DNA from: Erigeron canadensis
Lineage: Eukaryota > Streptophyta > Magnoliopsida > Asterales > Asteraceae
DNA: 64,000 nt
NCBI RefSeq assembly: GCF_010389155.1
Contig: NC_057764.1
Span: forward strand, 12,648,001-12,712,000
Direction of reading: 5' to 3'
Shown piece after piece: positions 13,357 through 39,301 of the stretch. The stretch's first letter is position 1. Each line of letters begins with the position of its first letter. Position numbers and translations under genes: made by a program. The notes under the pieces are model-generated. The model saw nothing but the letters and a program-made list of their open reading frames with translations, was not told the DNA's origin and did not search any database.

Positions 13357-14329
13357 TGCCGAGGTATTTGCTCGACAATTAATACAAGTGTCAACGGTCA
13401 TCTTCAAACCTTCATGATTTCTGGGCTTGAAATTATCTATCTCTAATAAAGGATGTCGAGATGTTTGCTCGGCAAACAAGTGTTTTCATAAACTTCGTTC
13501 AAGTGTTTTTCAACTATATGTAGAGCTCTTTACTCGGCATACTTTAAAAGTGTTTAACCAAACCTTTAAACTTTCACGAGGGATAAATAACATGATCATG
13601 ATTGCCATTTGCCGAGATGTTTGCTCGGCAAACCATTGATTTCTCAAAACCCATTCAAAGGACTTTAAATATATGCAGTGCTTTGACCTTGATTCCTTCC
13701 AGTGTTTCATGAAAATTTTTCCAAAGTACTAAAGTTCTCATTTGCAGAGCATTTTGCACGGCAAATCTATATAAATCTTTTTCAAAATACATTGTTTACA
13801 GAACTTTGTACTTGAATTCTTTCACGAGATTTCCTTGAAATAATTTTCATAAGTTTTTCTTGAATAAAGATGTTTGCAGAGCTTTAAGCTCGGCAAACAA
13901 CACATTTCATATGAAAATTTTTCTAAGTCATTTTGAACCATTTGCAGAGCAATAAGCTCGGCAAGTCACATTTTTTCAATTTATACTATTTGCATAGCAT
14001 TTTGCCCGATAAACAGTTAACATCTCTTCAATATGAGTTGAAACTAATTTTTACTTGAAATGATCCTTTATCAATTGGCAACATTCTTGTTGTTTAATCA
14101 AAGGATTTTTCATATATATTCAAAGTGAAGTCCAATTTATTTGTTCTATACGCCGAGGTATTTGCTCGGTATATCATGGACTTCATAAACATTCCTTCTG
14201 TCTGCCGAAGTTTATGCTCGGTAAATCTTAGAAGTTGCACAAAATTTGTTCCAACACCATTTTCCATACTTGTAATGTTTCTAGACAAAATTTTTCTTTT
14301 ATACTATCTGCCGAGTAGTAAGCTCGGCA
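13357..14329 (+). repeat. Array of about 11 GCCGAG...CTCGGC palindromes (TE3)
   Basis: Short inverted repeats recur every 40-150 bases. Good copies are TTTGCCGAG 13608-13616 with CTCGGCAAA 13624-13632 (9-bp arms, 7-base loop), 13872-13898 (GTTTGCAGAGCTT with AAGCTCGGCAAAC, 12 of 13 paired) and 14309-14329. Others lie at 13357-13376, 13454-13478, 13521-13539, 13741-13765, 13941-13965, 13989-14013, 14147-14173 and 14203-14226. Sequence between copies is unrelated. The same motif fills the gag leader of TE9. Confidence 0.85.
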
Positions 14330-14414
14330 AACACCTCATTTTGTCAAATTTGCTTTATTGTCAAAAATTCTTGTCTATGTCTTGTTAAATGTACTTGTGC
14401 TATATGTAAGTTCA

Positions 14415-14515
14415 TTTATAGTTTTCATGAGTATTAGGGTAAGAAGCAAGGTATTGAACGCCTTTGTGCACTACCTTCGTTATCTTATTATTAAATACTT
14501 ATGTGATTCTATAAA
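14415..14515 (+). other. Conserved GAACGCCTT hairpin, copy 1 (TE3)
   Basis: Nested complementary arms surround the core. They are TTTATAG 14415-14421 with CTATAAA 14509-14515, CATGAGTATT 14426-14435 with AATACTTATG 14494-14503 (one G-U pair) and GGTAAGA 14438-14444 with TCTTATT 14483-14489. The top of the hairpin holds ATTGAACGCCTTTGTGCACT. Function is unknown. Confidence 0.75.
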
Positions 14516-14519
14516 TTGT

Positions 14520-14615
14520 AATGTTTTCTTATATATATTAGGGTGAGAAGCAAGGTATTGAACACCTTTGTGTACTACTGTTGTTGTCTCATACTTAATA
14601 TATGTACGAAACATT
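14520..14615 (+). other. Conserved GAACGCCTT hairpin, copy 2 (TE3)
   Basis: Arms are AATGTTT 14520-14526 with AAACATT 14609-14615, ATATATTA 14533-14540 with TAATATAT 14596-14603, and GTGAGA 14543-14548 with TCTCAT 14587-14592. The core is ATTGAACACCTTTGTGTACT. The arms differ from copy 1 but pair in the same places. Confidence 0.75.
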
Positions 14616-14748
14616 GTGTTTGTGAACATAATGTGTATTATTTGTAATAATGTGTATATTTCTAAGTGTAATGTCTAAAGTTGTTTTTCTGGTCAAAATT
14701 TTGGTCAATTTGGTTTTATTTCAGGTTCTTCTTAAAAATCATAAAAAG

Positions 14749-17040
14749 ATGTCTATATTTGAAGAATGTGCCTCTATGAAGATGCAAGCTAATCAAGCTT
14801 TGCACATCCCATTTGCTTCAAAATTCCCAATCATTACTGAAATCCTTAATCACCATCCACTGAACATAGCTCTCACTAATGGAGCTATAGTTCCAGAGAA
14901 ATATGTATTCGATTAGTGGGAATCTATCGAGTACATAAAAGCTGACAAAAGAAAGAAGTCCGAAGACTACTTTCAATATACTCTGGAGTCAGAAGGAAAA
15001 TTTTTCTTATGCAAGTTTAACTTGGAACAACTCAGAGCTATATTGGGATTCCCAGAATATGAAGAACTGCCTTCAGTAGAAGAAATGTTAACTGCAGTTC
15101 AAGCACTGTGATATGAAGGAGAGTTGTCTTCATTGAGAGACTTCAAAAGGATGAATGTGGCTACATTGTGGCACACAATGTACAATGTACTGAACACTTG
15201 CTTGATACCATCCCAGAAAGGAATTGATGCAATGACACGACATTCTCTGTCACTTTATTACGCTGTCACTCATAACGTACAATGTGATTATGCAAAGATA
15301 ATCTAGGAGAAAATGGCTCAAGTGGTGAAAGGCAAAGATGGGCAAGAAAGAAAGTACATCCCGTACTTCAGATTATTCACTCTCATAATTGAAGATGTTC
15401 TGGATTCCACCGATATCATTCCCAAGTTAGAAGAATCATTCAAATGAGTCATTGCAATGTATAAATCAAATATAAGAGGCACAGAGAGTGATATTGCTAA
15501 ACCATTTCCCATTCCACCATTTTTACTAAATCTTGTACCTGCTAACAGTCCCCATCTTAGGACATGTAGAGAGTGGTTAGACACAATTCTGGGGTCTGAA
15601 AGCCGACAGACTCCTACCCCAACTGTGCATAGGTCGCCAAGTGAGGGTCCTAGGATAACTAAAAGAAAAAGAGGGGATAGAGGAGAGGGGACTGTTGAGG
15701 AACCAAGGAGGAAAGCTAAAAGAGTATCCTTTGAAAATCCTATCACACCAACTATCTCATCTTCTCAAACAACACCACCACCATCACAATCAACACCATC
15801 AATTCCTACAACACCTTCTACACCACTTCCTTCCATTTCTTCTCCAATTCAACCAATTCTTTCTCCACCACAATTATCCATAATTCTTGAAACTACATCA
15901 AACATTACTTCTCCCATTCTTGGGAGAAGAATAAAAATGCAAGCTAGAAGGATTTGTTAAAACTTACAAAGAAGATTAAATCTAAATCCGGTTTGTTAAA
16001 ACTTACAAAGAAGAAGCACAGGAAGAGACACTCTGCTTCATCTTCTAGCTTGCAGAGAGATGAGTCGGGTACACTTGATATTGATCAATCTTTTAGTACC
16101 TCGACAGATTTTGATGAAGAACATATCACACAAACCATAGAGATGAGGAACAAGGCACTAGAGATGAGGTTGTGCCGGAGGTACAAGGAGGGACTGAGGG
16201 AGGAGTTGAAAATACCCGAGAGGTTGAGAGGTCCGGTCTAGGACAAGGGCAAAAAGAAAACGTTAGCCCTCCAATAGATGAAACCAATGAGTCTAGCCGG
16301 GATGAAAACCCTAGGGTAGAAGTCGAGAGCTCCCCACTCTTGCATGCACAAACATCTCCCAGCCATTCTGACTCCTCACAATAGGAGTTAATCTCAGATA
16401 TGCACGGGGAACAACCACGTTCACCACACTCTCCTCATTTGGAGGATGAGAGTGTTGAAATAAGAAAGGACCAGCCCCACCTTTTGCCTTCATTTCGTGC
16501 ACAAGAGTCTAGTTCTCCTAGGGACATGGACCTGCAAGCTCAGTTTAGTACTGATGCTGAAACAAGCGGAGAGGGACCCACTTTGTATGACCCTCTAGGA
16601 CAGCTTGGAAGTCTTTCCTTAGCTAACATCATGCCAGCTTTAGCCACAGGTAACAGTTCTCACACCGAGACTGAGAGACAGTATGAACGCCAAGGTGACA
16701 CTGCTGTTTCTCAGGATCAACCTGAGACTTTATTAACGGGCATTCTCAGTGACCCCGGTGTTACCGAACAACAAGTCCCGGACAGTGATTTATCACAGTC
16801 TAGGACACACCTTGATTCTAGTTGTGAAGCCAGTGAATCTCAAACAGCTGGTGAGGGTTTACCCCAAGGATTTACAGGAAATCCTGAAATATCTTCGGCT
16901 AGTTTAGGGTACACCACCAGTGTGCCAACAACCTCTGGGTTGGGTCCACCATCTATACAAACACCAGCACCACTTCAAACAACAACAAAACCATAACAAA
17001 CTTCATCAACCTCCAAACAACAAGACAAAGATAACACATG
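14749..17040 (+). pseudogene. TE3 extra ORF, N-terminal part (function unknown)
   Basis: The start is ATG 14749 (MSIFEECASMKMQ), 25 bases after an acceptor-like CAG. One frame runs to about 15959 with four stops at 14914, 15109, 15304 and 15445. Two are TGA and two TAG, all obtainable by C-to-T change of CGA or CAG. After a frameshift it continues as a Pro/Ser/Thr-rich, low-complexity region (about 15590-16996) with a basic KRKRGDRG stretch and a 39-base in-frame duplication at 15953-16013. No domain is recognised. It sits where SIRE-type Copia elements carry an env-like ORF. It is cut at about 17040 by TE4 and resumes at 41611. Confidence 0.6.
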
Positions 17041-22814: not shown

Positions 22815-23031
22815 TGTTAGAAATCCAAAAATAGTGATAAATTATAATTTAAGTTAGTGGACGTTTTGTTGTTAAGACATGGTGAAATGATTTCTAAGGT
22901 TGAACCGCCATTGTTGAGATGGTGAAATGTCTCTCTCTCTAGAAAATCACACACACTAAACACACCAAGAACACACACACTTAAACCGCCATTGTTGAGA
23001 TCAAATCAATAGCAGAAATCGTGTTGTTACA
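22815..23031 (+). repeat. 5' LTR of TE5, internally rearranged
   Basis: It matches the 3' LTR at both ends but is 217 bases long instead of 312. About 120 internal bases, including the TATA box seen at 39120-39127, are replaced by 26 bases copied from elsewhere in the same LTR (22904-22920 repeats 22984-23000, and 22921-22929 repeats 22881-22889). Without its TATA box this LTR is unlikely to drive full transcription. Confidence 0.9.
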
Positions 23032-29333: not shown

Positions 29334-30116
29334 TCAAGTAGAGCGAGGATTGTCAATCCATAATCCTTCATCATGGTCGGATCTCAAGTATATGGTATTA
29401 TCTGCCACAACAATTGTTGATTGAGTATCGGTAGAAAATGGGGGCAACTCATCAAGTTGATCGTATTCTTCTTCATTAACAACGTTCTCGACACCAAGAA
29501 TACGTCGTTTACCATGGAGAACGACATGCGATCTAGAGTTACTCGGGTCCTCGATATAGAATACTTGGGTGGCTAGCTTAGCTAAGATGAACGGTTCTGA
29601 TGCATAGCCATTTGTGGAAAGGTCTACTGTTGTGATACCAAAATTGTCGACTTTGACACCTCGTCGGTTTTCCACCCACTTACACTTGAGCATGGGTATA
29701 CTAAAGGCATTATAATCAAGTTCTACAATTTCTTCGATAACACCATAATAGGAATCCTTTGCGATCGACGACCTCGTGGAGAATCCTGTGGTTGTAGCTA
29801 TTAGCGTCACTCCACTGTTTTGCATTGTACTCTTTGCATCTTGTTGTTTCGTATAAAATGTATAGCTATTTATATCATAACCTTGATATTTTGTAACCCT
29901 CTCACTCGGACTGTATGCCAACCATTTCACTTCTTCATCCACATTTTCTGACCTACTTACTCTATATTTTAACCATGATTCAAATGTGTTGTGTTCAATG
30001 GCCAAAAATTTGTCACTCTTCCTCCTGTTTGTCTGATTTAAAAACCGCTTATGCTCATTTACATATGTATCAATACATGTCATGTGTTGTAAGACTGTAA
30101 AATGTGCTTGATGCAT
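29334..30116 (-). pseudogene. TE6 DUF4216-type domain of the CACTA transposase gene
   Basis: About 260 codons on the minus strand. Wording such as DSYYGVIEEIVELDY, LKCKWVENRRGVKVD and ASEPFILAKLATQVFYIEDP is that of the DUF4216 module found at the C-terminal end of plant CACTA TNP2 proteins. It ends at a stop at 29334-29336. It lies downstream of the DUF4218 piece in a different frame, with stops or a possible intron between (30117-30151). The role of this module is not established. Confidence 0.8.
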
Positions 30117-30151
30117 ATAATCTCTTGACGGAAACTCCTTTCTTTTCCCAA

Positions 30152-30838
30152 TTATACCAGCCCCTGACAGTCTACCCTGTGTCGACGCTCTGGGAGTCCA
30201 ATACTTTTTGAGCCTCTTAGGTAATCATTACAAAATTCAAGAATCTCCTCGGAAGCATAACCTTCAACAATGCTTCCTTCTAGTCGAGCTCTGTTCCTTA
30301 CATACTTTTTTAAGATACCCATATACCTCTCAAACGGGTACATGTATCGTAGAAAGACCGGACCGCAAGCCTTAATTTCATATACAATATGAGATACGAG
30401 GTGAACCATGACATAAAAAAATGAAGGTGGGAAGTACATTTCAAGTTGGCACAGAGTGACGATAACATCATGTTGCAAAGTATCCAACGCTTCGGGATCA
30501 ATCACTTTTGAATGGATAGAGTTAAAGAACAAACATAGTTTTGTTATTGTATAACGGATGTGTTCCGGAAGTATTCCACGAATTGCAATAGGAATCATTT
30601 GTGTCATCAAAACATGGCAATCGTGGGACTTCATACCAATCAACTTGTTGTCTTTCATCGAAACCAACCTTTTAACGTTCGAAGAATATCCTGATGGGAC
30701 CTTAACACCATTTAAGCATTTGCAAAAAGAAGTTCTTTCATCTTTGGACAAGGTATAACAGGCTGCTGGCAGATATGTTCGCTTCCCATCACTATTCTCC
30801 TGTGGAGCAAGCTTCGGTCGTATTTTCATATCGAACAT
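30152..30838 (-). pseudogene. TE6 DUF4218-type domain of the CACTA transposase gene
   Basis: About 228 codons on the minus strand with the hallmarks of DUF4218: GMKSHDCHVLMTQMIPIAIR, LEMYFPPSFFYVMVHLVSHI, RYMYPFERYMGILKKYVRN and EGSIVEGYASEE. It directly follows the TNP2 catalytic region, as in plant CACTA elements. Frame changes on both sides suggest decay or introns. Confidence 0.85.
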
Positions 30839-31479
30839 TAACTCCGTCTTTGGTTTTCCCTGGAATATTCAATAGTAACCCGATCAAACTATCACAAACA
30901 TTTTTTTCGATATGCATAACATCAATACAATGTCGGACCTGTAAATCCTTCCAGTATATTAAATCCCAAAAAATAGATTTTTTTTTCCAGATGTCATCCG
31001 ATTTCCCACGCTTTCTTTTTTTTACCGAACTCATTTTGGAAGTTTTCAACCCGGGAAAATACAGTTTCTCCATCTGGTGGTGGGGGTAGACTTCCGTACT
31101 CACTATAGCCATCAAACAGATTACCCATGTTACGATATGGGTGATCAGGTGGAAGTGATCTTCTATGGCCCATATACACTGTTTTCTTGCAGTATTTCAA
31201 CCATCTTGAACATGTGTTATCATGGCAAATGGGACACGCCTTAGACCCTTTTGTACCATACCCCGACAAGTTCCCATAGGCCGGGAAATCACTGATAGTG
31301 CAAAAAACCATGGCCCGTAATCGAAAATTTTCATTCATATACCCATCATGAACTACAAATCCCGGACTCCATAATGTTTTCAAGTCATCAGTTAAAGGAG
31401 AGAAATACACATCAATCTCATTACCAGGTTGTTTCGGACCTTGAATTAATAAAGACATCATGATATATTTTCGTTTCAT
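30792..31479 (-). pseudogene. TE6 TNP2-type transposase catalytic region
   Basis: Two minus-strand frames (30994-31479 and 30792-31115) encode Transposase_21 (TNP2) sequence: GPKQPGNEIDVYFSPL, ISDFPAYGNLSGYGTKG, ACPICHDNTCS and then WKDLQVRHCIDVMHIEKNV. The frames overlap at a run near 31005-31020, so a frameshift lies there. TNP2 is the DDE-type enzyme that cuts CACTA termini. This copy is not translatable as one chain. Confidence 0.85.
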
Positions 31480-31482
31480 GCA

Positions 31483-32568
31483 TTACCAAGGTGGAAGATT
31501 GTAAATGCATAAAATAACTGGCCAAGTGCTGTGACAGCTGCTCATGTTTCCAAAGGGATTAATTCCATCTGAACTAAGTCCGAATCTTAAATTTCTGATC
31601 TCATCTCCAAATTCGTCAAATGTATCTATATTCCTCCATTGAGGGGAATCAGCCACATGTCTAATTTTTCCATCGTTTTTACGTTCTTCATTATGCCAAC
31701 GCAACAATTTTGCATCTCTAGGGTTCGCAAATAATCGTCTTAATCTTGGTATGATGGGAAAATACCACAAAACTTTAGCTGGAGGAGGATTCTTCTTCAC
31801 ATCATCCCCGACTTTTGTTTTTTTGCGCTCATACCTAGACGCACCACATTTGAGACATTCATGGAGGTCGCTATCCTCATTTCTATATAACATACAATCA
31901 TTTGGACATGCTGGTATTCTTTCAACTTCCATTCCCATTGGATACAACATTTTCTTTGCTTCATATAACGAAACAGGCAACACGTTATCTTCTGGGAGCA
32001 TGTCATGCGCAACTTCTAAAAGTCTTTTGAAGCTTGCATCACTCCAACCATAGTTTCCTTTTAAAGTAAACAAATTCAATACCGCAGAAAGTTTTGAGTA
32101 TTTTTTACAACCATTGTACAAATCTTCTTTTGAGTCGGCAAACACTTGTTGAAATTCATCGTTTTCAGTTGCATCATCATCATATGCATCATCATAATTA
32201 TCATCTACATCATCTCCACCACTTTCATTATCATTAACATTTTTAGTAGCTTTTTCTCTCAATACATTAAACATTTCAGTAAAATTATCATTTTCATTTA
32301 TGTCGTCTACACCACTATCAACCAATAACTCCTCATGATATGACCAACAAGTATACCCTGGCACAAAACCCTTTACTACCAAATGTCTATATATTTCTCT
32401 CGCTTCATCATATTTTACACAGTTTTTGCAATCTGCACAAGGACATGATATTCTAGAATTTCCTTGCAACACTCGATCAGCCTCCGCTACTTCCATAAAA
32501 TCAGCCAAGTTTTTTTGGTATTCATTTGTATGACGACCAATCTCGTACATCCATTCACTCCGTTTCAT
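31483..32568 (-). pseudogene. TE6 transposase N-terminus (transposase-associated domain)
   Basis: The start is ATG 32568 (MKRSEWMYEIGR). The first about 80 residues match the Transpos_assoc module with its Cys/His set (SCPCADCKNC, then YTCWSYHEE). An acidic Asp-rich linker follows, then the first part of TNP2 (CPNDCMLYRNE, LKCGASRYER, WYFPIIPRLRRLF and FGNMSSCHSTWPVIL). A TAA at 31483 interrupts LPPW-CMKRKY, so one codon change separates it from the next TNP2 piece. Confidence 0.85.
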
Positions 32569-33359: not shown

Positions 33360-33704
33360 AGCCGAAACAAAGGTAGGAAAATACTTTAAAAGTGTTTTTT
33401 CCATAACGGGTTTTGATTTCAGAGTATAGAGAAGTGTTTTCTTAAAACGGGTCTCTATTTGATAAGTTTAGGGAAGTGTTATTATCACAAACCGGTCTTT
33501 ATGAAAAGATATCGTTTATTGCATTAAAACCGGTGTCCATTTGAACTTAAAGAGACCTGTTTTTTACTTTAAACTCCTCTTTATACATAGAGACTACTTT
33601 TTTATTCAAAACGGGTCTCCTTAGTTTTTTAAGAAACCAGTTTTATTAAAAAAATTTAAAACACGTTTCTATGAGGGGTGTCTATTTGGATTTTTGTAGT
33701 AGTG
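33360..33704 (-). repeat. TE6 right terminal repeat and subterminal repeats
   Basis: About eight related units of the form AAACGGGTCTCTATTTG (also as AACCGGTCTTTATG and AACCGGTGTCCATTTG) are spaced 30-50 bases apart up to the CACTA end at 33704. Such subterminal repeats bind the TNPA-type protein in known En/Spm elements. Confidence 0.85.
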
Positions 33705-34990
33705 TTTCTTGCCTCCAAAGATGAAACAACTCAAACTTTGATCGATTTCATCACTTCTACTCAAGTAAATCTTCAACTTCCAATTCGTTACATCCGTTTG
33801 GATAACGGAACTGAGTTCAAAAATGTCGTTTTTGATGAATTTTGTAAATCCAAAGGCATTACTCACCAATTCTCTGCGGTTCGTACCCCACAACAAAATG
33901 GTGTCGTTGAAAGAAGAAATCGAACGCTTGTGGAAGCTGCAAGAACCATGCTAGCTTATTCTAAGTTACCTTCCAACATGTGGGCTGAAGCTGTTGACAC
34001 TGCTTGTCACACTCAGAATCGGTCCATTGTTAATCAGCGTTTTGAGAAGACTCCTTATGAGGTTGTTAACAAACGGAAACCCAACATCAACTATTTTCAT
34101 ATTTTTGGGTGTGTTTGTTATACTCTGAATGATAGGGAAAATCTTGGAAAATTCGAGAAGAAAGGTGATGAAGGTTACTTTGTTGGTTATTCCAAGACAT
34201 CGATTGCCTACCGAATCTACAATCGCCAAACAAATACGATTCAAGAAACAATGAATGTTTGGTTTGATGAGATGTCGGGCATGATTTTCGAGCAAGAAAG
34301 TTTGCTACCAACAAATAATGGTTCAAGTGATTCAAGTACTTCATCAGGGACTTCTACTTTAGCATCCAAATTCAAGAAGTTTCCAGCTCCAACGAGTGAT
34401 GAGTTAGACATTCTTTTTGAAGAATTCTACAATTCAAAACCGATTCATGATAAGGAACCTCAAGTCATCATTGAACCAATTCCGAACAATGATCAAGTTC
34501 CTGACAACCTTCGTGAATCATCATCAAGTTCATCTGAGCAAAATGCTACTTCTTCAAGTAGTAGTTCTTCATCCTCTTCTAATGATTCTTCTTCTCAATC
34601 CTCTCCTGATAATTCTTCTCCAGTGAATGTTCAAGAACAACCTACCCAATTTACCCAGACTACCAATCCGATAGACACTCCAAATGTATATGTGCCTCTT
34701 GATTTCGATCATCCATCTTACGAGGAAGCTGTTCTACCAAGCTATGATTCCATCTCTCAACAAAACTCTGGTTTTAATGATGATGATGTTGATGTCAATC
34801 AACAAGATCCTCTTCCTCATGATCGCAAATGGTCATGTATGCGAAAAGATCATCCTACAGATCAAATTATTGGAGATCCACAAGCCGGAGTAACTACTCG
34901 TACTTCAGTAAATGAGTGTCTGGTTGCACTTTCTCTTAGCAACATTGAACCCAAAACTGTTCTGAAGCTCTTCGAGATCCAGAATGGGTT
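33705..34990 (+). pseudogene. pol: TE5 integrase (C-terminal two thirds) and linker
   Basis: Reading starts at FLASKDETTQTLIDFITS, immediately after the CACTA end, so the zinc domain and first catalytic D are absent. The second D (RLDNGTEF) and E (QQNGVVERRNR) are intact. The C-terminal block YFHIFGCVCYTLNDRENLGKF, a Ser-rich linker and RKWSCMRKDHPTDQIIGD follow. A one-base frameshift near 34960 separates this from RT. Confidence 0.9.
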
Positions 34991-36026
34991 AAAGCTATGC
35001 AAGACGAACTCACTCAGTTTGAAAGACTGAAAGTATGGAGATTAGTTCCAAATCCAAGGAAAAATGAACCTATTGGCACAAAGTGGATTTTCAAGAACAA
35101 GAAGGATGAGAATGGAGTGGTAGTAAGGAACAAGGCTGAATTAGTTGCAAAGGGTTATTACCCTTTGCAACTAACCTGGTGTTGATTTCGACGAAACTTT
35201 TGCTCCAGTTGCAAGAATGGAAGCCATTCGGATCTTCTTAGCTTATGCTGCATTCAGAAACTTCACTGTGTTTCAAATGGATGTGAAGACAGCTTTCTTG
35301 AATGGTGATCTCAAAGAAGAAGTTTACGTTGAACAACCAGAAGGTTTTGTTGATCCCAAAAGACCAAACCATGTCTACAGGTTAGACAAGGCTCTCTATG
35401 GTCTTAAGCAAGCACCCCGAGCATGGTATGATTCCTTATCTACTTTCTTAATTCGAGGTGGCTTTACCAAAGGTACTATTGATCCTACCCTGTTTATTCG
35501 CAAACAAGGTAAACATGTGCTTCTTGTGCAAATATATGTTGATGACATTATTTTTGGGTCAACCAGTCAAATGTTTTGTCGAAACTTTTCATCTCTAATG
35601 GTAAATCATTTTGAAATGAGCATGATTGGGGAAATGAACTACTTTTTGGGTCTTCAAATCAAACAACTACCAAATGGTATTTTCATATCACAAGGTAAGT
35701 ATATTCATGACATGTTGAAAAAGTTTGATATGACAACTTGTTCTTCAATTTCAACTCCAATGGCTGGTCTGAAATATGATCATATTCCCATTTATTGTGA
35801 CTCTCAAAGTGCCATTGCTATTGCAGTCAACTTAGTAAATCACTCTCGATCAAAGCATATTGATGTGAGATATCATTTTCTCAAAGATCATATTGAGAAA
35901 GGTGACATTGAGCTGTACTTTGTGGGAACTGACTATCAGCTTGCAGATTTGTTCACTAAACCACTAGATGAGAAAAGGTTTAACTTTCTTATCTTTAAGC
36001 TTGACATGTTAAATCTTGAACCTTAA
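34940..36026 (+). pseudogene. pol: TE5 reverse transcriptase with shortened RNase H
   Basis: RT reads DELTQFERLKVWRLV and [13 protein letters not shown], is broken by a fold-back insertion at 35141-35174, and resumes with [29 protein letters not shown] and an intact YVDDIIFG (about 35535). After KKFDM and STPMAG it jumps straight to [16 protein letters not shown], so the middle of RNase H, including the AYSDAD block, is deleted. The end ([30 protein letters not shown]) is normal, with a stop at 36024. Confidence 0.9.
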
Positions 36027-36300
36027 CTTATTTTGTTCTTGATACATTCTTGAAAAACAAAATTTAAAATTTGAAAAGACAAAAATCAAATACAAAAATA
36101 TAAAATTTTGAAAAATAACAAAAATATTTTCTTTATTTTTTTCTTTCTTCTTTTTTATCAAAATGGCTTGCATATATTCTGTATGCAACCCGTTCTTCAT
36201 TGAGCTATTTATTTTAAAATGACTTATGCATACTTTGTGCATAATCTGTTCTTATTTGAAATTATTTATATTTCAAAGTTGGTATAAAATGTGTTGTTAT

Positions 36301-36675
36301 ACATATAGATTGATATAAGATAATGCGGAATTGAACGCCTTTGTGTACTTCCAAATGGTCTTATATGAATATGGATGTGTAATGGCAATTTTTCATTTTT
36401 TAAAATTGCAAACAATTCTCTTTAAGAGTCTTGATTTTGTTGCAAACAACTTCAAATTTTTCAAATGAATTTCATGTTTCAAAAAACTCTCAATTGTTGA
36501 TATGAGAAGCAAAGGATTGAACGCCTTTGTGTACTCCCTAGTTGTCTCATCTTGAACAATTGATTGAGTTAAATTTGTGCTTAAATGTGTTATTTGCATC
36601 CAACTTGTTGATGTAAGATGCGAAGGATTGAACGCCTTTGTGTACTCCCTAGTAATCTTACTATGAACATTGTTG
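36301..36675 (+). repeat. Three conserved GAACGCCTT hairpins (TE5)
   Basis: Copy 3 has ATATAAGA 36313-36320 pairing with TCTTATAT 36359-36366, plus CATAT 36302-36306 with ATATG 36369-36373. Copy 4 has CAATTGTT 36491-36498 with AACAATTG 36555-36562 and ATGAGA 36502-36507 with TCTCAT 36545-36550. Copy 5 has GTAAGAT 36613-36619 with ATCTTAC 36655-36661 and TGTT 36606-36609 with AACA 36666-36669. All three cores read ATTGAACGCCTTTGTGTACT. Copies 4 and 5 also show an inner AAGG/CCTT helix. Confidence 0.8.
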
Positions 36676-37700
36676 TTGACGCAAAACTTTGTGTTTCTTA
36701 AAATCTTGTTCACTTTTAGACTCTCAAATTTTTTTCCATGTATATATCACAACAAAGATTTTACTCTAGTTGACTTCACAAAAACCAATTTTTGCTCTAC
36801 CTTTCTATGAAAAACATTTTTGATCTACCTTTGCATAGATTAAGGGGGAGTTTTGTGATTTCAAAATTTTCAAAAAACTTCAAATGTGTTTTCAAATCAT
36901 TTTCATACACACATTTGATGATTTTCAAATGATTCTCATCAATTCAAGTTCGGTGTTTAGTTTGCACTTGAGAGATTCATTCACTCCATGAACTTCATCA
37001 TCACCGATAAGTTCTAACCCCGGAGTATTCAATTCTTTCTTTAGATTGTAAGGGTATTTTGAGTGATGATGGTTTCGTGCAAATAGGATGGAGGGAGTAA
37101 AGTTGAAAAGTGAGAGGTTATGGTGATATGTTGTGAGAAAAGGGTTAAAAGAAATGATACCCTTCCCTAAAACTCTCAAATCGCCGGGTACAACACATTT
37201 CTATCGGATGTCATTTGTTGATATGTTGATAAAGACTTCATGGACCCAATGAAGCGATGCACATCTTTACCTAACCACTCAAGTGTTTCTTAACAAATGC
37301 TTGTTTTATTTCTCACGGAGATTTTTCACATCTCTATTAACTCTTCATTTGGAAGATGTTGATATTGAAAAAGGGAGACATTCTGCTCCAGTCCCCGACT
37401 TCATTTGATCACGTTGTGTCTAGAGCTATCTTGCTTGATCATTATTTTGATCCTTATTCATTTTTCTTAAGACACATTTGAGTCATATCTTTGTGATATT
37501 ATTGCATATCTATGTGATATAGCCGGAACATTTGTAGTGATATCTTAATAGGTATTCCACAATGATCAAATGGAAATCCTACCAATGCTAACATATTTTC
37601 CAACATTGAACGTAGGTCTCATAATTACATTTATGTGATTATTGAGTGAACGAGAAGTCTATTAGTGACCTCGGATGTTTCCTAACAAGTCTTTAAGGAT

Positions 37701-37752
37701 AATAGATTGTGGTTATCGAACGCCTTAGGTGACACTGACCATGATTTCTATT
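37701..37752 (+). other. Diverged GAACGCCTT hairpin, copy 6 (TE5)
   Basis: AATAGA 37701-37706 pairs with TCTATT 37747-37752, and TTGTGGT 37707-37713 with ACCATGA 37738-37744 (two wobble pairs). The loop holds CGAACGCCTTAGGTGACACT, matching the core at GAACGCCTT and ending in a similar ACT. Confidence 0.6.
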
Positions 37753-38978
37753 CTTTGAAGCAATCTCGTAGTTGAAAAGCTACCAGACCGAACTATGTTA
37801 GAAAATTGCTCTGTGCATAATTCAATGATAAATAGGAAATCCAAAAAATGTCACACATTTCTTTCGGTCATTTCATTAATCATTTTGATTTTTGAACATG
37901 TTAACGGATCATCCTTATCCGGTTTTTCCATTTCTCATCTCACAAACACAAAAACCACCAATATCATACTATAACATTTGTTTCAACAATTTCAACCTTA
38001 CATTTTAGTTACCCTGGTTAGGACTATTAAATTGGGTTGATGTGTTGCTGTTTGATACTTCTTCATGCAAATCTAGTTTTAACTTGTGATATTTCTTTTC
38101 GTATTCGATCAATCAATGTTTGCATAATGACATTGGTTTCCAACTTTGTCATTATGAGGGGGAGAAAAAGATTATGATTGATCGAGAAAGAAAACCTTTG
38201 AGCTTGATTTGTGCAAACATGGAGTTAGTAAGAAGGTTGTAGTGAGTGTATGGAGGTTACAGATAAAAGATAAGAGAGAATATTTAGTGTATGGGATTGA
38301 TGGGAAAACTTGAGTTGTTCATTTTCAGAATTGAGTTCTTGACTTGGAAAAAGGGATAATTACAAAGATAAGGATATGATAATTCAAAGATGCTCCAAAA
38401 TGCTTACACTCATGAATTGAGAGGAAGCATGATTAATTCAAGTTTTGTTCAAAAGTTTACTCTCCAAAGTGTTTAAGTCAAAATGACAAAGATCAAAGCT
38501 ACAAAAGTTGAAAGATTGATTGGAAGATTCAAGACAAAGAAGTAAAACTTCGAAAGAGTCTTCATCAACACATTTCATTCAAGATCTTCAATCAAGAAGC
38601 TTCAATGCATATATCAAGGGGGAGAGTTTAAGTTTTTGATACTTCATTCCAAGGAAACAAATTTTCATTCAAGAATCGAAGATTGAAGAACCAAATTTAT
38701 ACCTTCCACACTTCAAAATACAACTCTGATTCATGGTTCAACAATTTTCAAAGATTCTAGACTCATTCATTTTATTCTCTATTCAAAAAGAACATTGAGA
38801 ATTTCATCATGTTTTAACTACAAAAAGTCCAAGACCAAGATTGATTCAAGTTCTCCAGAGACAATGAGAAAGCTTTGAAGACTTGTTTCATCACACCAAT
38901 TGTCTTCACCATCGGGCTCATCAACTTAATTCCTACAAGACAAAATAACACGTACTTCATTCATTACAATATATCACT

Positions 38979-38989
38979 AAGGGGGAGAA
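38979..38989 (+). other. Polypurine tract of TE5
   Basis: AAGGGGGAGAA immediately precedes the TG of the 3' LTR. Confidence 0.85.
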
Positions 38990-39301
38990 TGTTAGAAATC
39001 CAAAAATAGTGATAAATTGTAATTTAAGTTAGTGGACGTTGTTGTTGTTAAGACATCGTGAAATGATTTCTAAGGTTGAGGGACTAGGAGTGTCAATTAG
39101 CTTAATTGTAGATTTAGACTATAAATACCCTTAACTCCTAAGAAATCATAAGCTTTTGATCCATTTTTACACATACAACATATACAGATCGTCTCTTTCT
39201 CTCTCTCTCTAGAAAATCACACACACTAGACACACCAAGAACACACACACTTGAACCGCCATTGTTGAGATCAAATCAATAGCAGAAATTGTGTTGTTAC
39301 A
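38990..39301 (+). repeat. 3' LTR of TE5
   Basis: 312 bases, TGTTAGAAATCC to GTTGTTACA, with a TATA box at 39120-39127 and a CT-rich then CACA-rich stretch. Followed by the target duplication AAAAG. This is the complete version with which the rearranged 5' LTR can be compared. Confidence 0.93.

What the first reader, a model, noticed from the sequence alone, without database searches (positions are those of the whole stretch)
36301..36675. A covarying stem-loop with an almost fixed core, three tandem copies in TE5
Seen directly: three hairpins about 70-100 bases long share the core ATTGAACGCCTTTGTGTACT. The flanking arms differ in sequence yet stay complementary: ATATAAGA/TCTTATAT, ATGAGA/TCTCAT and GTAAGAT/ATCTTAC, each with a further outer helix (for example CAATTGTT/AACAATTG). 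Conserved loop plus changed but paired stems is the classic sign of a selected RNA structure. I know of no described retrotransposon element with this core. Inference: a 3' RNA signal for packaging, export, translation or template switching.
Basis: partly seen in the sequence, partly recalled or inferred. Interest (0 to 1): 0.87.

Follow-up and report, generated by a model that had tools for sequence, protein, structure and literature searches.

The report
Repeated covarying RNA hairpins in Sirevirus-like retrotransposons
A plant retrotransposon carries, after its polymerase gene, several copies of an RNA hairpin whose tip is almost fixed while its stem keeps changing yet stays paired; over a thousand copies of the tip sequence exist in this genome, so the hairpin is probably a docking site that decides the fate of the element's RNA.

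Summary
The window holds five copies of the core (0 to 1 mismatches; 0 expected); a 15-base piece occurs 1,454 times in the 426 Mb plant genome, reversed control 0. RNAalifold on 27 copies finds the helices itself, with double-sided compensatory changes at 7 of 16 pairs. Within the core, one A-U pair is flipped to U-A: 1,349 A-U, 281 U-A, and 1 and 0 of the two broken single-change forms.
I extend the finding. A second hairpin (B) shares GAACGC...GTG and lies in non-coding linkers and within an env-like reading frame, on quite different stems; 28 of 30 sites pair in one fixed register with at most two mismatches in 11. A-C mismatches are depleted and G-U is not, which points to sense RNA. A third small hairpin (C) also covaries.
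The hosts are copia elements resembling Sireviruses. Hairpins persist with an env-like ORF, without one, and where no RT/RNase H was found. Best reading: a repeated protein-docking RNA element for unspliced genomic RNA (export or packaging). The ligand is unknown; no second plant could be searched.

The parts
36292..36387 (+). hairpin A, copy H1 (core 36330-36349)
36485..36570 (+). hairpin A, copy H2 (core 36516-36535)
36600..36677 (+). hairpin A, copy H3 (core 36627-36646); its single-sequence MFE prefers a competing pairing of the tip
37704..37747 (+). hairpin B in the non-coding linker (GAACGCCTTAGGTGACAC between 12-base arms, 12 of 12 pairing with G-U)
16671..16714 (+). hairpin B inside the env-like ORF (13 of 13 arm pairs with G-U)
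14414..14516 (+). hairpin A, copy H6a, between pol and the env-like ORF of a second element (core 14453-14472)
14519..14616 (+). hairpin A, copy H6b (core 14557-14576; G.U to A-U in the core stem)
36168..36188 (+). hairpin C, copy 1 (arms TTGCATA/TATGCAA, loop TATTCTG)
36224..36244 (+). hairpin C, copy 2 (arms TTATGCA/TGCATAA, loop TACTTTG)
33678..36026 (+). copia pol of the host element, in broken ORFs (integrase part, RT); ends about 300 bases before the H1 core
36843..36850 (+). polypurine octamer AGGGGGAG in the linker; further copies at 38157, 38617 and 38980
38988..39301 (+). beginning of the 3' LTR of the host element (its end not determined); 5' LTR remnants match at 22815-22903 and 22930-23031
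14724..14725 (+). candidate 3' splice junction TTTCAG|GT between hairpins A and the env-like ATG (14749)
   Evidence: inference from sequence only
14749..16996 (+). env-like region of the second element, broken by stops; called env-like by position only (no Pfam match)

Best explanation
The element is a repeated, sense-strand RNA docking hairpin. A long, freely evolving stem presents a fixed tip: a closing A-U pair, a conserved asymmetric internal loop (5' side U[U/C]GAA, 3' side UAC in type A or ACAC in type B), a short CGC/GUG helix with a G.U pair, and a loop of four or five bases (in type A a G-C, an A.A mismatch and a covarying A-U pair may close part of the internal loop). Shown here: the structure, its selection as RNA, its multiplicity, and its place downstream of pol. 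Inferred: a protein reads the tip, several copies act together, and the outcome is handling of the full-length unspliced genomic RNA, most likely nuclear export and cytoplasmic fate in the manner of a retroviral constitutive transport element (CTE). In lineages with an env-like ORF the type A array lies before a candidate 3' splice site just upstream of the env-like ATG, so it would mark unspliced RNA.
For: Covariation in type A and type B. Core pair: 1,349 A-U, 281 U-A, 1 U.U, 0 A.A copies genome-wide. Sense strand: B stems have 39 G-U and 1 A-C cells where random pairing of the same letters gives 33 and 15; MFE is lower in sense than antisense for 13 of 14 pieces. Cores differ less between 13 copies (0.008, 0.044, 0.036) than the linker around them (0.175 to 0.278). 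Type A hairpins occur in the lineage of the window (no env-like homology found in its linker), in the lineage with pol and env-like ORF, and in one with gag-like and env-like ORFs but no RT/RNase H hit in 10 kb. Gag-like proteins of two lineages 44% identical over 371 aligned positions. Candidate 3' splice site just before the env-like ATG in 5 of 6 copies by pattern. Several CTEs per transcript enhanced RNA targeting to the microtubule-organising centre, suggesting cooperation (PMC4829213, abstract and passages).
Against: No ligand, transcript or splice junction was observed. The 3' splice site is a short motif and may be chance. Type B lies within the env-like ORF and would remain on a spliced RNA. 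The window's own lineage has no env-like ORF, so it may have no splicing to escape. Single-sequence folds miss the shared tip in 5 of 6 H3 copies; two ORF-type B pieces and the linker B piece fold only weakly better than shuffles (z -1.7, -2.5, -2.0), and for one of them (L185) the antisense strand folds better; for H2, H3 and H8 sense and antisense are close. The flipped core may stem from few ancient events, and single transversions are rare anyway. That plants lack a clear NXF1 is recalled, not tested; if so, the route would differ from M-PMV. All comparisons rest on one genome.
Confidence: 0.4

Rival explanations
1. Packaging signal: the element's own Gag (with its CCHC zinc knuckle) binds the repeated tip and gathers genomic RNA into particles, as coat-protein hairpins do.
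For: Repeated copies on genomic RNA; present in a lineage with gag-like and env-like ORFs where no RT/RNase H was found, as expected of a cis-acting mobilisation signal; a CCHC gag ORF in the window.
Against: Known packaging signals of LTR elements usually lie near the 5' end (recalled; for Ty1 the start of the abstract of PMC5454406 in the listing says so). The core hardly changes between lineages whose gag-like proteins are 44% identical, which fits a host ligand better. No Gag binding was tested.
Confidence: 0.3
2. Control of the env-like gene: the array lies directly upstream of the env-like ORF and regulates its splicing or translation (leader structure or internal entry).
For: In the two env-like lineages seen (6 copies), the last core used lies about 130 to 225 bases before the env-like ATG.
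Against: The lineage of the window keeps up to three A copies plus B although no env-like homology was found in its linker (tblastn, E up to 0.01); B itself lies within the ORF.
Confidence: 0.17
3. A reverse-transcription element: the structured linker helps choose among the several polypurine tracts or promotes template switching.
For: The array lies upstream of several AGGGGGAG copies in the same linker; L162 is a recombinant between the H1 and H2 cores.
Against: In the second element of the window a polypurine octamer (12502) precedes the array and the env-like region runs on for more than 2 kb after it, so the array is not tied to the 3' LTR. The recombinant is one case and may be an ordinary genomic deletion.
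Confidence: 0.05
4. Not RNA: DNA palindromes, promoter boxes, microRNA-like precursors or recent tandem duplicates that pair by descent only.
For: Hairpin-forming repeats in plant retroelements can be DNA-level cis boxes and small-RNA sources (PMC2829016, PMC10760457; passages).
Against: Arms differ between copies and stay paired; the tip, not an arm, is conserved (opposite to a miRNA precursor); A-C is depleted on the sense strand; no CGG-CCG core as in the Sirevirus repeated motif.
Confidence: 0.04

Closest known systems
Sirevirus linker motifs (multiple polypurine tracts, inverted repeat at the 3' LTR, CGG-CCG repeated motifs; Bousios et al. 2010, PMC2829016)
   Same: Same kind of host element, same linker; the polypurine octamer AGGGGGAG is present several times here.
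   Different: Those motifs are a purine tract, an inverted repeat forming a stem loop at the LTR junction, and short palindromes. In the opening part, one section and the passages I read, no loop-conserved hairpin with changing stems is described; the word hairpin has 0 occurrences in the text.
Constitutive transport elements of simple retroviruses (M-PMV CTE; PMC4829213, abstract and passages)
   Same: Cis-acting structured RNA; several copies act more strongly; downstream of pol (location of the M-PMV CTE recalled).
   Different: No sequence relation was tested; no Rfam family matched the window at gathering score. Ligand here unknown.
Palindromic LTR hairpins of maize Sireviruses that attract small RNAs (cited in PMC10760457, passages)
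   Same: Hairpin-forming repeats in Sireviruses.
   Different: Those are palindromic motifs in the LTR; here the tip is conserved, the stems vary, and the site is internal.
Ty1 5' RNA structures for dimerisation and packaging (PMC5454406, start of abstract in a listing)
   Same: RNA structure with a cis-acting role in a copia-type element.
   Different: Ty1 structures are at the 5' terminus; these are repeated and downstream of pol.

Membership tests
Sirevirus (host element) | copia-type gag and pol | tested here: met
   Retrotran_gag_2, zf-CCHC, SH3_retrovirus and RVT_2 above cut-off, rve just below it, in window ORFs
Sirevirus (host element) | several identical polypurine octamers AGGGGGAG in the linker | tested here: met
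   four in the linker of the window's element (36843, 38157, 38617, 38980); two to five in the 13 copies with a located pol end
Sirevirus (host element) | terminal octamer joined to the LTR through the conserved attachment dinucleotide AT | tested here: inconclusive
   here AGGGGGAG-AA-TG, one base from the published pattern
Sirevirus (host element) | env-like gene in the linker of some members | tested here: inconclusive
   homologous ORFs after the array in two lineages, named env-like by position only: no Pfam match, no homologue in the protein search; none found in the window's own lineage
Sirevirus (host element) | RT phylogeny inside the Sirevirus clade | not tested
   no reference set was compared
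Constitutive transport element | promotes export of unspliced RNA | not testable with these tools
   needs an experiment
Constitutive transport element | direct recruitment of the NXF1/NXT1 export receptor | not testable with these tools
   ligand unknown; plant NXF1 status recalled only
Sirevirus repeated motif (CGG-CCG palindrome) | palindromic CGG-CCG core | tested here: not met
   the core UUGAACGCCUUUGUGUACU holds no CGG-CCG palindrome
microRNA precursor | conserved arm, variable loop | tested here: not met
   tip conserved, arms more variable; no Rfam match at gathering score; three matches far below their cut-offs, two of them miRNA families

The most novel reading that the evidence does not exclude
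Plant Sirevirus-like retrotransposons share a repeated RNA docking code, used by several lineages, possibly also by pol-less ones, and embedded even within an env-like reading frame, that a host RNA-binding protein reads to export or sort the unspliced genome: a plant counterpart of the retroviral constitutive transport element, with an RNA tip that has no match in Rfam.
Probability: 0.33. Interest if true: 0.86.

Novelty: new variant of a known kind. Interest (0 to 1): 0.72.

Why it matters
How plant LTR retrotransposons get unspliced genomic RNA out of the nucleus and into particles is, to my knowledge, an open question with few defined cis-acting RNA signals. A compact motif with a near-invariant tip, over a thousand genomic copies and clear covariation gives a bait for finding the protein and a simple stem-break/stem-repair test in a reporter. 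Hairpin B within the env-like frame also shows coding sequence shaped by RNA structure.

Tried and rejected
Searches outside this genome gave nothing usable. GTDB contigs: 0. Protein search with one env-like piece: 202 candidates, none at E <= 0.001. So conservation in other plants is untested.

Rfam: 0 matches at gathering score in the whole window; three weak matches in the region, far below their cut-offs.

An antisense copy of the core in L169 first suggested long-range pairing between linker and LTR. It lies just after the pol end of another copia element on the opposite strand, so the idea was dropped; that copy has an altered core and may be a further lineage or a decayed copy. Its genome count did not complete. 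L168 at 186 (UUCG loop) has the core but no good stem and was set aside as possible chance.

A second count on alignment A3 was weaker where my hand-written lower helix ignored a one-base bulge: 85.0% of cells paired, lower helix 71.3%; pairs with a change on both sides (151/500 shuffles as high) and further pair types (473/500) not beyond shuffles; cells with double changes and covariation score 0/500. In A1 the number of further pair types was also unremarkable (121/500).

Covariance model R1 took only the eight apical pairs from RNAalifold. Over 264 kb it gave 54 strong matches at core copies that patterns had found, and six core sites also scored weakly on the opposite strand.

Rows dropped. 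Of 61 copies listed, two were excluded by hand (L168_186, L154_6799) and the B copies by the mismatch limit; 24 were left after a 90% identity filter; the recombinant L162_6499 was dropped and four window copies added, giving the 27 of A1. Of 30 B sites, L173 and L178 (7 and 5 mismatches in 11) were left out of the G-U count: 28 rows, 16 distinct stems, 176 cells. With them, 18 distinct stems and 198 cells hold 136 Watson-Crick, 42 G-U, 5 A-C and 15 other. In A5 I gave 12 of the 30, and several minus-strand rows were cut short by my coordinates; gap cells are set aside by the tool.

Full report
What was checked. The core ATTGAACGCCTTTGTGTACT is present exactly at 36330, 36516 and 36627 and with one mismatch at 14453 and 14557; 0 expected in 100 shuffles. 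Two further sites share GAACGCC and GGTGACACT: 37717 and 16684. Of 14 pieces of 101 to 111 bases folded against 300 dinucleotide shuffles each, H1, H2, H3, H6a, H6b and the ORF copy of B in the window give z -4.0, -3.3, -2.8, -4.9, -4.4 and -4.2; five pieces from other loci (H1, H4, H5, H8, H9) give -5.1 to -7.6; the linker copy of B gives only -2.0 (12 of 300 shuffles as low) and two more ORF-type B pieces -1.7 (20 of 300) and -2.5 (2 of 300). Single-sequence folds miss the shared tip in some copies, notably 5 of the 6 H3 copies.

Genome-wide count. The window lies in a held genome of 426 Mb. TTGAACRCCTTTGTG has 737 forward and 717 reverse exact matches and 0 for the reversed pattern. The second core GAACGCCN{1,4}GGTGACACT has 173 and 147, control 0; in the listed first places the inner bases are TTA, TT, TA or AA. 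In viral contigs the 15-mer hits look like chance; stricter patterns give 0 there and in GTDB contigs.

Host elements. The window's element has copia pol domains, pol ending at about 36026 and four AGGGGGAG octamers in the linker. Its 3' LTR starts at about 38988 and matches remnants at 22815-22903 and 22930-23031. This fits the Sirevirus description of Bousios et al. 2010 (PMC2829016; I saw the first of seven parts, one section and passages), except that the attachment dinucleotide reads AA, not AT. I built no RT tree. The ORFs called env-like here are named by position: they match no Pfam family, and one piece searched found no homologue.

Covariation, type A. MAFFT plus RNAalifold on 27 copies gave 16 pairs; 7 have double-sided changes that keep the pair, e.g. 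columns 31-78 A-U 14 / G-C 12 and 43-64 A-U 12 / G-C 9 / U-A 4. Cells paired 94.9% against 88.1% in shuffles (0 of 500 as high); pairs with double changes 7 against 3.9 (3 of 500); cells with double changes 39 against 11.7 (0 of 500); further pair types not beyond shuffles (121 of 500); versions slid by 1 to 3 columns 21.8 to 56.4% paired. The structure was derived from these sequences and shuffles do not correct for relatedness, so these numbers are not probabilities. A second, hand-drawn count was weaker (see Tried and rejected).

A compensatory change inside the core. In the structure the core folds as G-C, A.A, A-U, C-G, G.U, C-G around CUUU. In the H9 hairpins (L158, L164) the A-U pair is U-A and the closing A-U is G-C. 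Genome-wide, with 18-base patterns: A-U form 686 + 663 = 1,349; U-A form 139 + 142 = 281; broken U.U form 1; broken A.A form 0; reversed controls 0 in all four. The 281 copies belong to repeated families and may go back to few events, and single transversions are rare in young copies, but no lineage with a broken pair was seen.

Type B. Sites were chosen by core only. Of 30, in the first 11 pairs of one fixed, ungapped register 19 have no mismatch, 8 have one, 1 has two, and L173 and L178 have 7 and 5. In 12 aligned sites 96.4% of cells pair against 77.7% shuffled (0 of 500); 7 of 15 pairs have double changes (17 of 500 shuffles as high); single pairs show up to four types (U-A, A-U, C-G, G-C); slid versions pair 28.0 to 47.7%. 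The three CGC/GUG pairs never vary and so say nothing. Seven of the 18 short pieces (L176, L180-L185) lie in open frames that read ERQGDT or ERLGDT over the core, whereas the B sites of the window's lineage lie in a linker without env-like homology, so protein coding alone does not explain the shared letters.

Which strand. In 16 distinct B stems (176 cells, L173 and L178 left out): Watson-Crick 129, G-U 39, A-C 1, other 7; random pairing of the same letters gives 48, 33 and 15. A-C is depleted while G-U is not, as expected if selection acts on sense RNA. Shared ancestry inflates these counts. Sense MFE is lower than antisense in 13 of 14 pieces, widely for H1 (-31.3 against -13.4) but narrowly for H2, H3 and H8, and the reverse holds for L185 (-26.3 against -33.2).

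Conservation. In 13 linkers of the window's lineage, mean pairwise difference is 0.008, 0.044 and 0.036 in the three cores, 0.033 to 0.145 in the arms, and 0.175 to 0.278 in four stretches around them; it is 0.231 over the C hairpins and 0.372 over the last 27 bases of pol. The last value, over coding sequence, and 1,451 columns for 860-base pieces show that the alignment is poor in places, so only the contrast near the cores is safe.

Where the hairpins lie. Covariance model R1 over 264 kb (window plus 20 loci) gives 54 strong matches, at core copies found by pattern. In 13 copies of the window's lineage with a located pol end, one to three A cores follow 290 to 795 bases after it, and B, found in 9 of the 13, follows at 1.4 to 1.9 kb. 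In the second lineage (window, L152) two A hairpins lie about 2.1 kb after pol, and B lies in the env-like ORF; B in L152 and L167 has one changed core base. In L157, L158 and L164 a gag-like ORF is followed by A hairpins and, in L157 and L158, env-like ORFs, with no RT/RNase H hit in the 10 kb fetched. The gag-like ORF of L157 is 44% identical over 371 positions to a gag ORF of the window, though Pfam gives a gag match only in L164 and below its cut-off. This lineage may lack pol or the loci may be rearranged. Env-like pieces of the two lineages are about 28 to 45% identical.

A clue to function. A candidate 3' splice site lies 11 to 24 bases before the env-like ATG, after the hairpins, in 5 of 6 copies by my pattern (window, L152, L167, L158, L164); in the sixth, L157, a similar CAG is visible by eye. 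If used, array A would be intronic and mark unspliced genomic RNA. This is inference from sequence. Retroviral constitutive transport elements act on such RNA, and several copies per transcript had a stronger effect on RNA targeting in the cytoplasm (PMC4829213, abstract and passages).

A third hairpin. Upstream of H1, loops TA[CT]T[CT]TG occur, in L168 four times at 56-base steps. Of 54 loop matches within 700 bases upstream of an A core, 31 carry a shared CC- or TC-starting tail (my reading of the list); of these 28 pair at 7 of 7 and 3 at 6 of 7, with six different 7/7 arm pairs. Elsewhere in the loci 1 of 127 loop matches reaches 6. The linker thus holds several structured RNA families.

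Mechanism and rivals. I commit to a protein-docking hairpin acting on unspliced genomic RNA, most likely for export and sorting (0.40), ahead of Gag packaging (0.30), env-like gene control (0.17), a reverse-transcription role (0.05) and non-RNA explanations (0.04). The near-identity of the core between lineages whose gag-like proteins differ is the main reason to prefer a host ligand. No ligand, transcript or second plant species was examined.

Literature. Searches (listings; passages of PMC2829016, PMC10760457, PMC3599292 and PMC4829213) show Sirevirus purine tracts, an inverted repeat at the LTR and LTR palindromes, but no repeated loop-conserved hairpin. A letter search for the core and pieces of it gave one paper, on zebrafish, with one 13-letter match. 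The library holds open-licence papers only.

Noticed in passing
window 36168-36188 and 36224-36244; L151-L170 upstream of H1: A second small hairpin family (loop TA[CT]T[CT]TG, six different 7/7 arm pairs, 56-base steps in L168) lies between pol and H1.
   Followed up: partly
L157, L158, L164: Loci with a gag-like ORF and the hairpin array (env-like ORFs in L157 and L158), but no RT/RNase H hit within the 10 kb fetched; possibly a pol-less lineage.
   Followed up: partly
L162 6499: A copy with the left arm of H1 and the right arm of H2 joined at the core, as by a deletion between two cores.
   Followed up: no
window 13360-14330: Repeated short palindromes of the form CCGAG...CTCGG upstream of the env-like ORF, read by eye; they resemble the published Sirevirus repeated motifs.
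   Followed up: no
window 29334-32568, minus strand: tnp2-type transposase ORFs (CACTA-like by recall) with DUF4216 and DUF4218 lie between a copia gag and the pol of the host element, probably a nested insertion.
   Followed up: partly
L157 env-like ORF, around the site aligned by eye with window 16685: A strong predicted hairpin with a different tip lies near where other lineages have hairpin B.
   Followed up: no
L169 9394, minus strand: A core variant ATTGAACGCCTTGATGTACT lies shortly after the pol end of another copia element with a short linker; genome count not obtained.
   Followed up: partly
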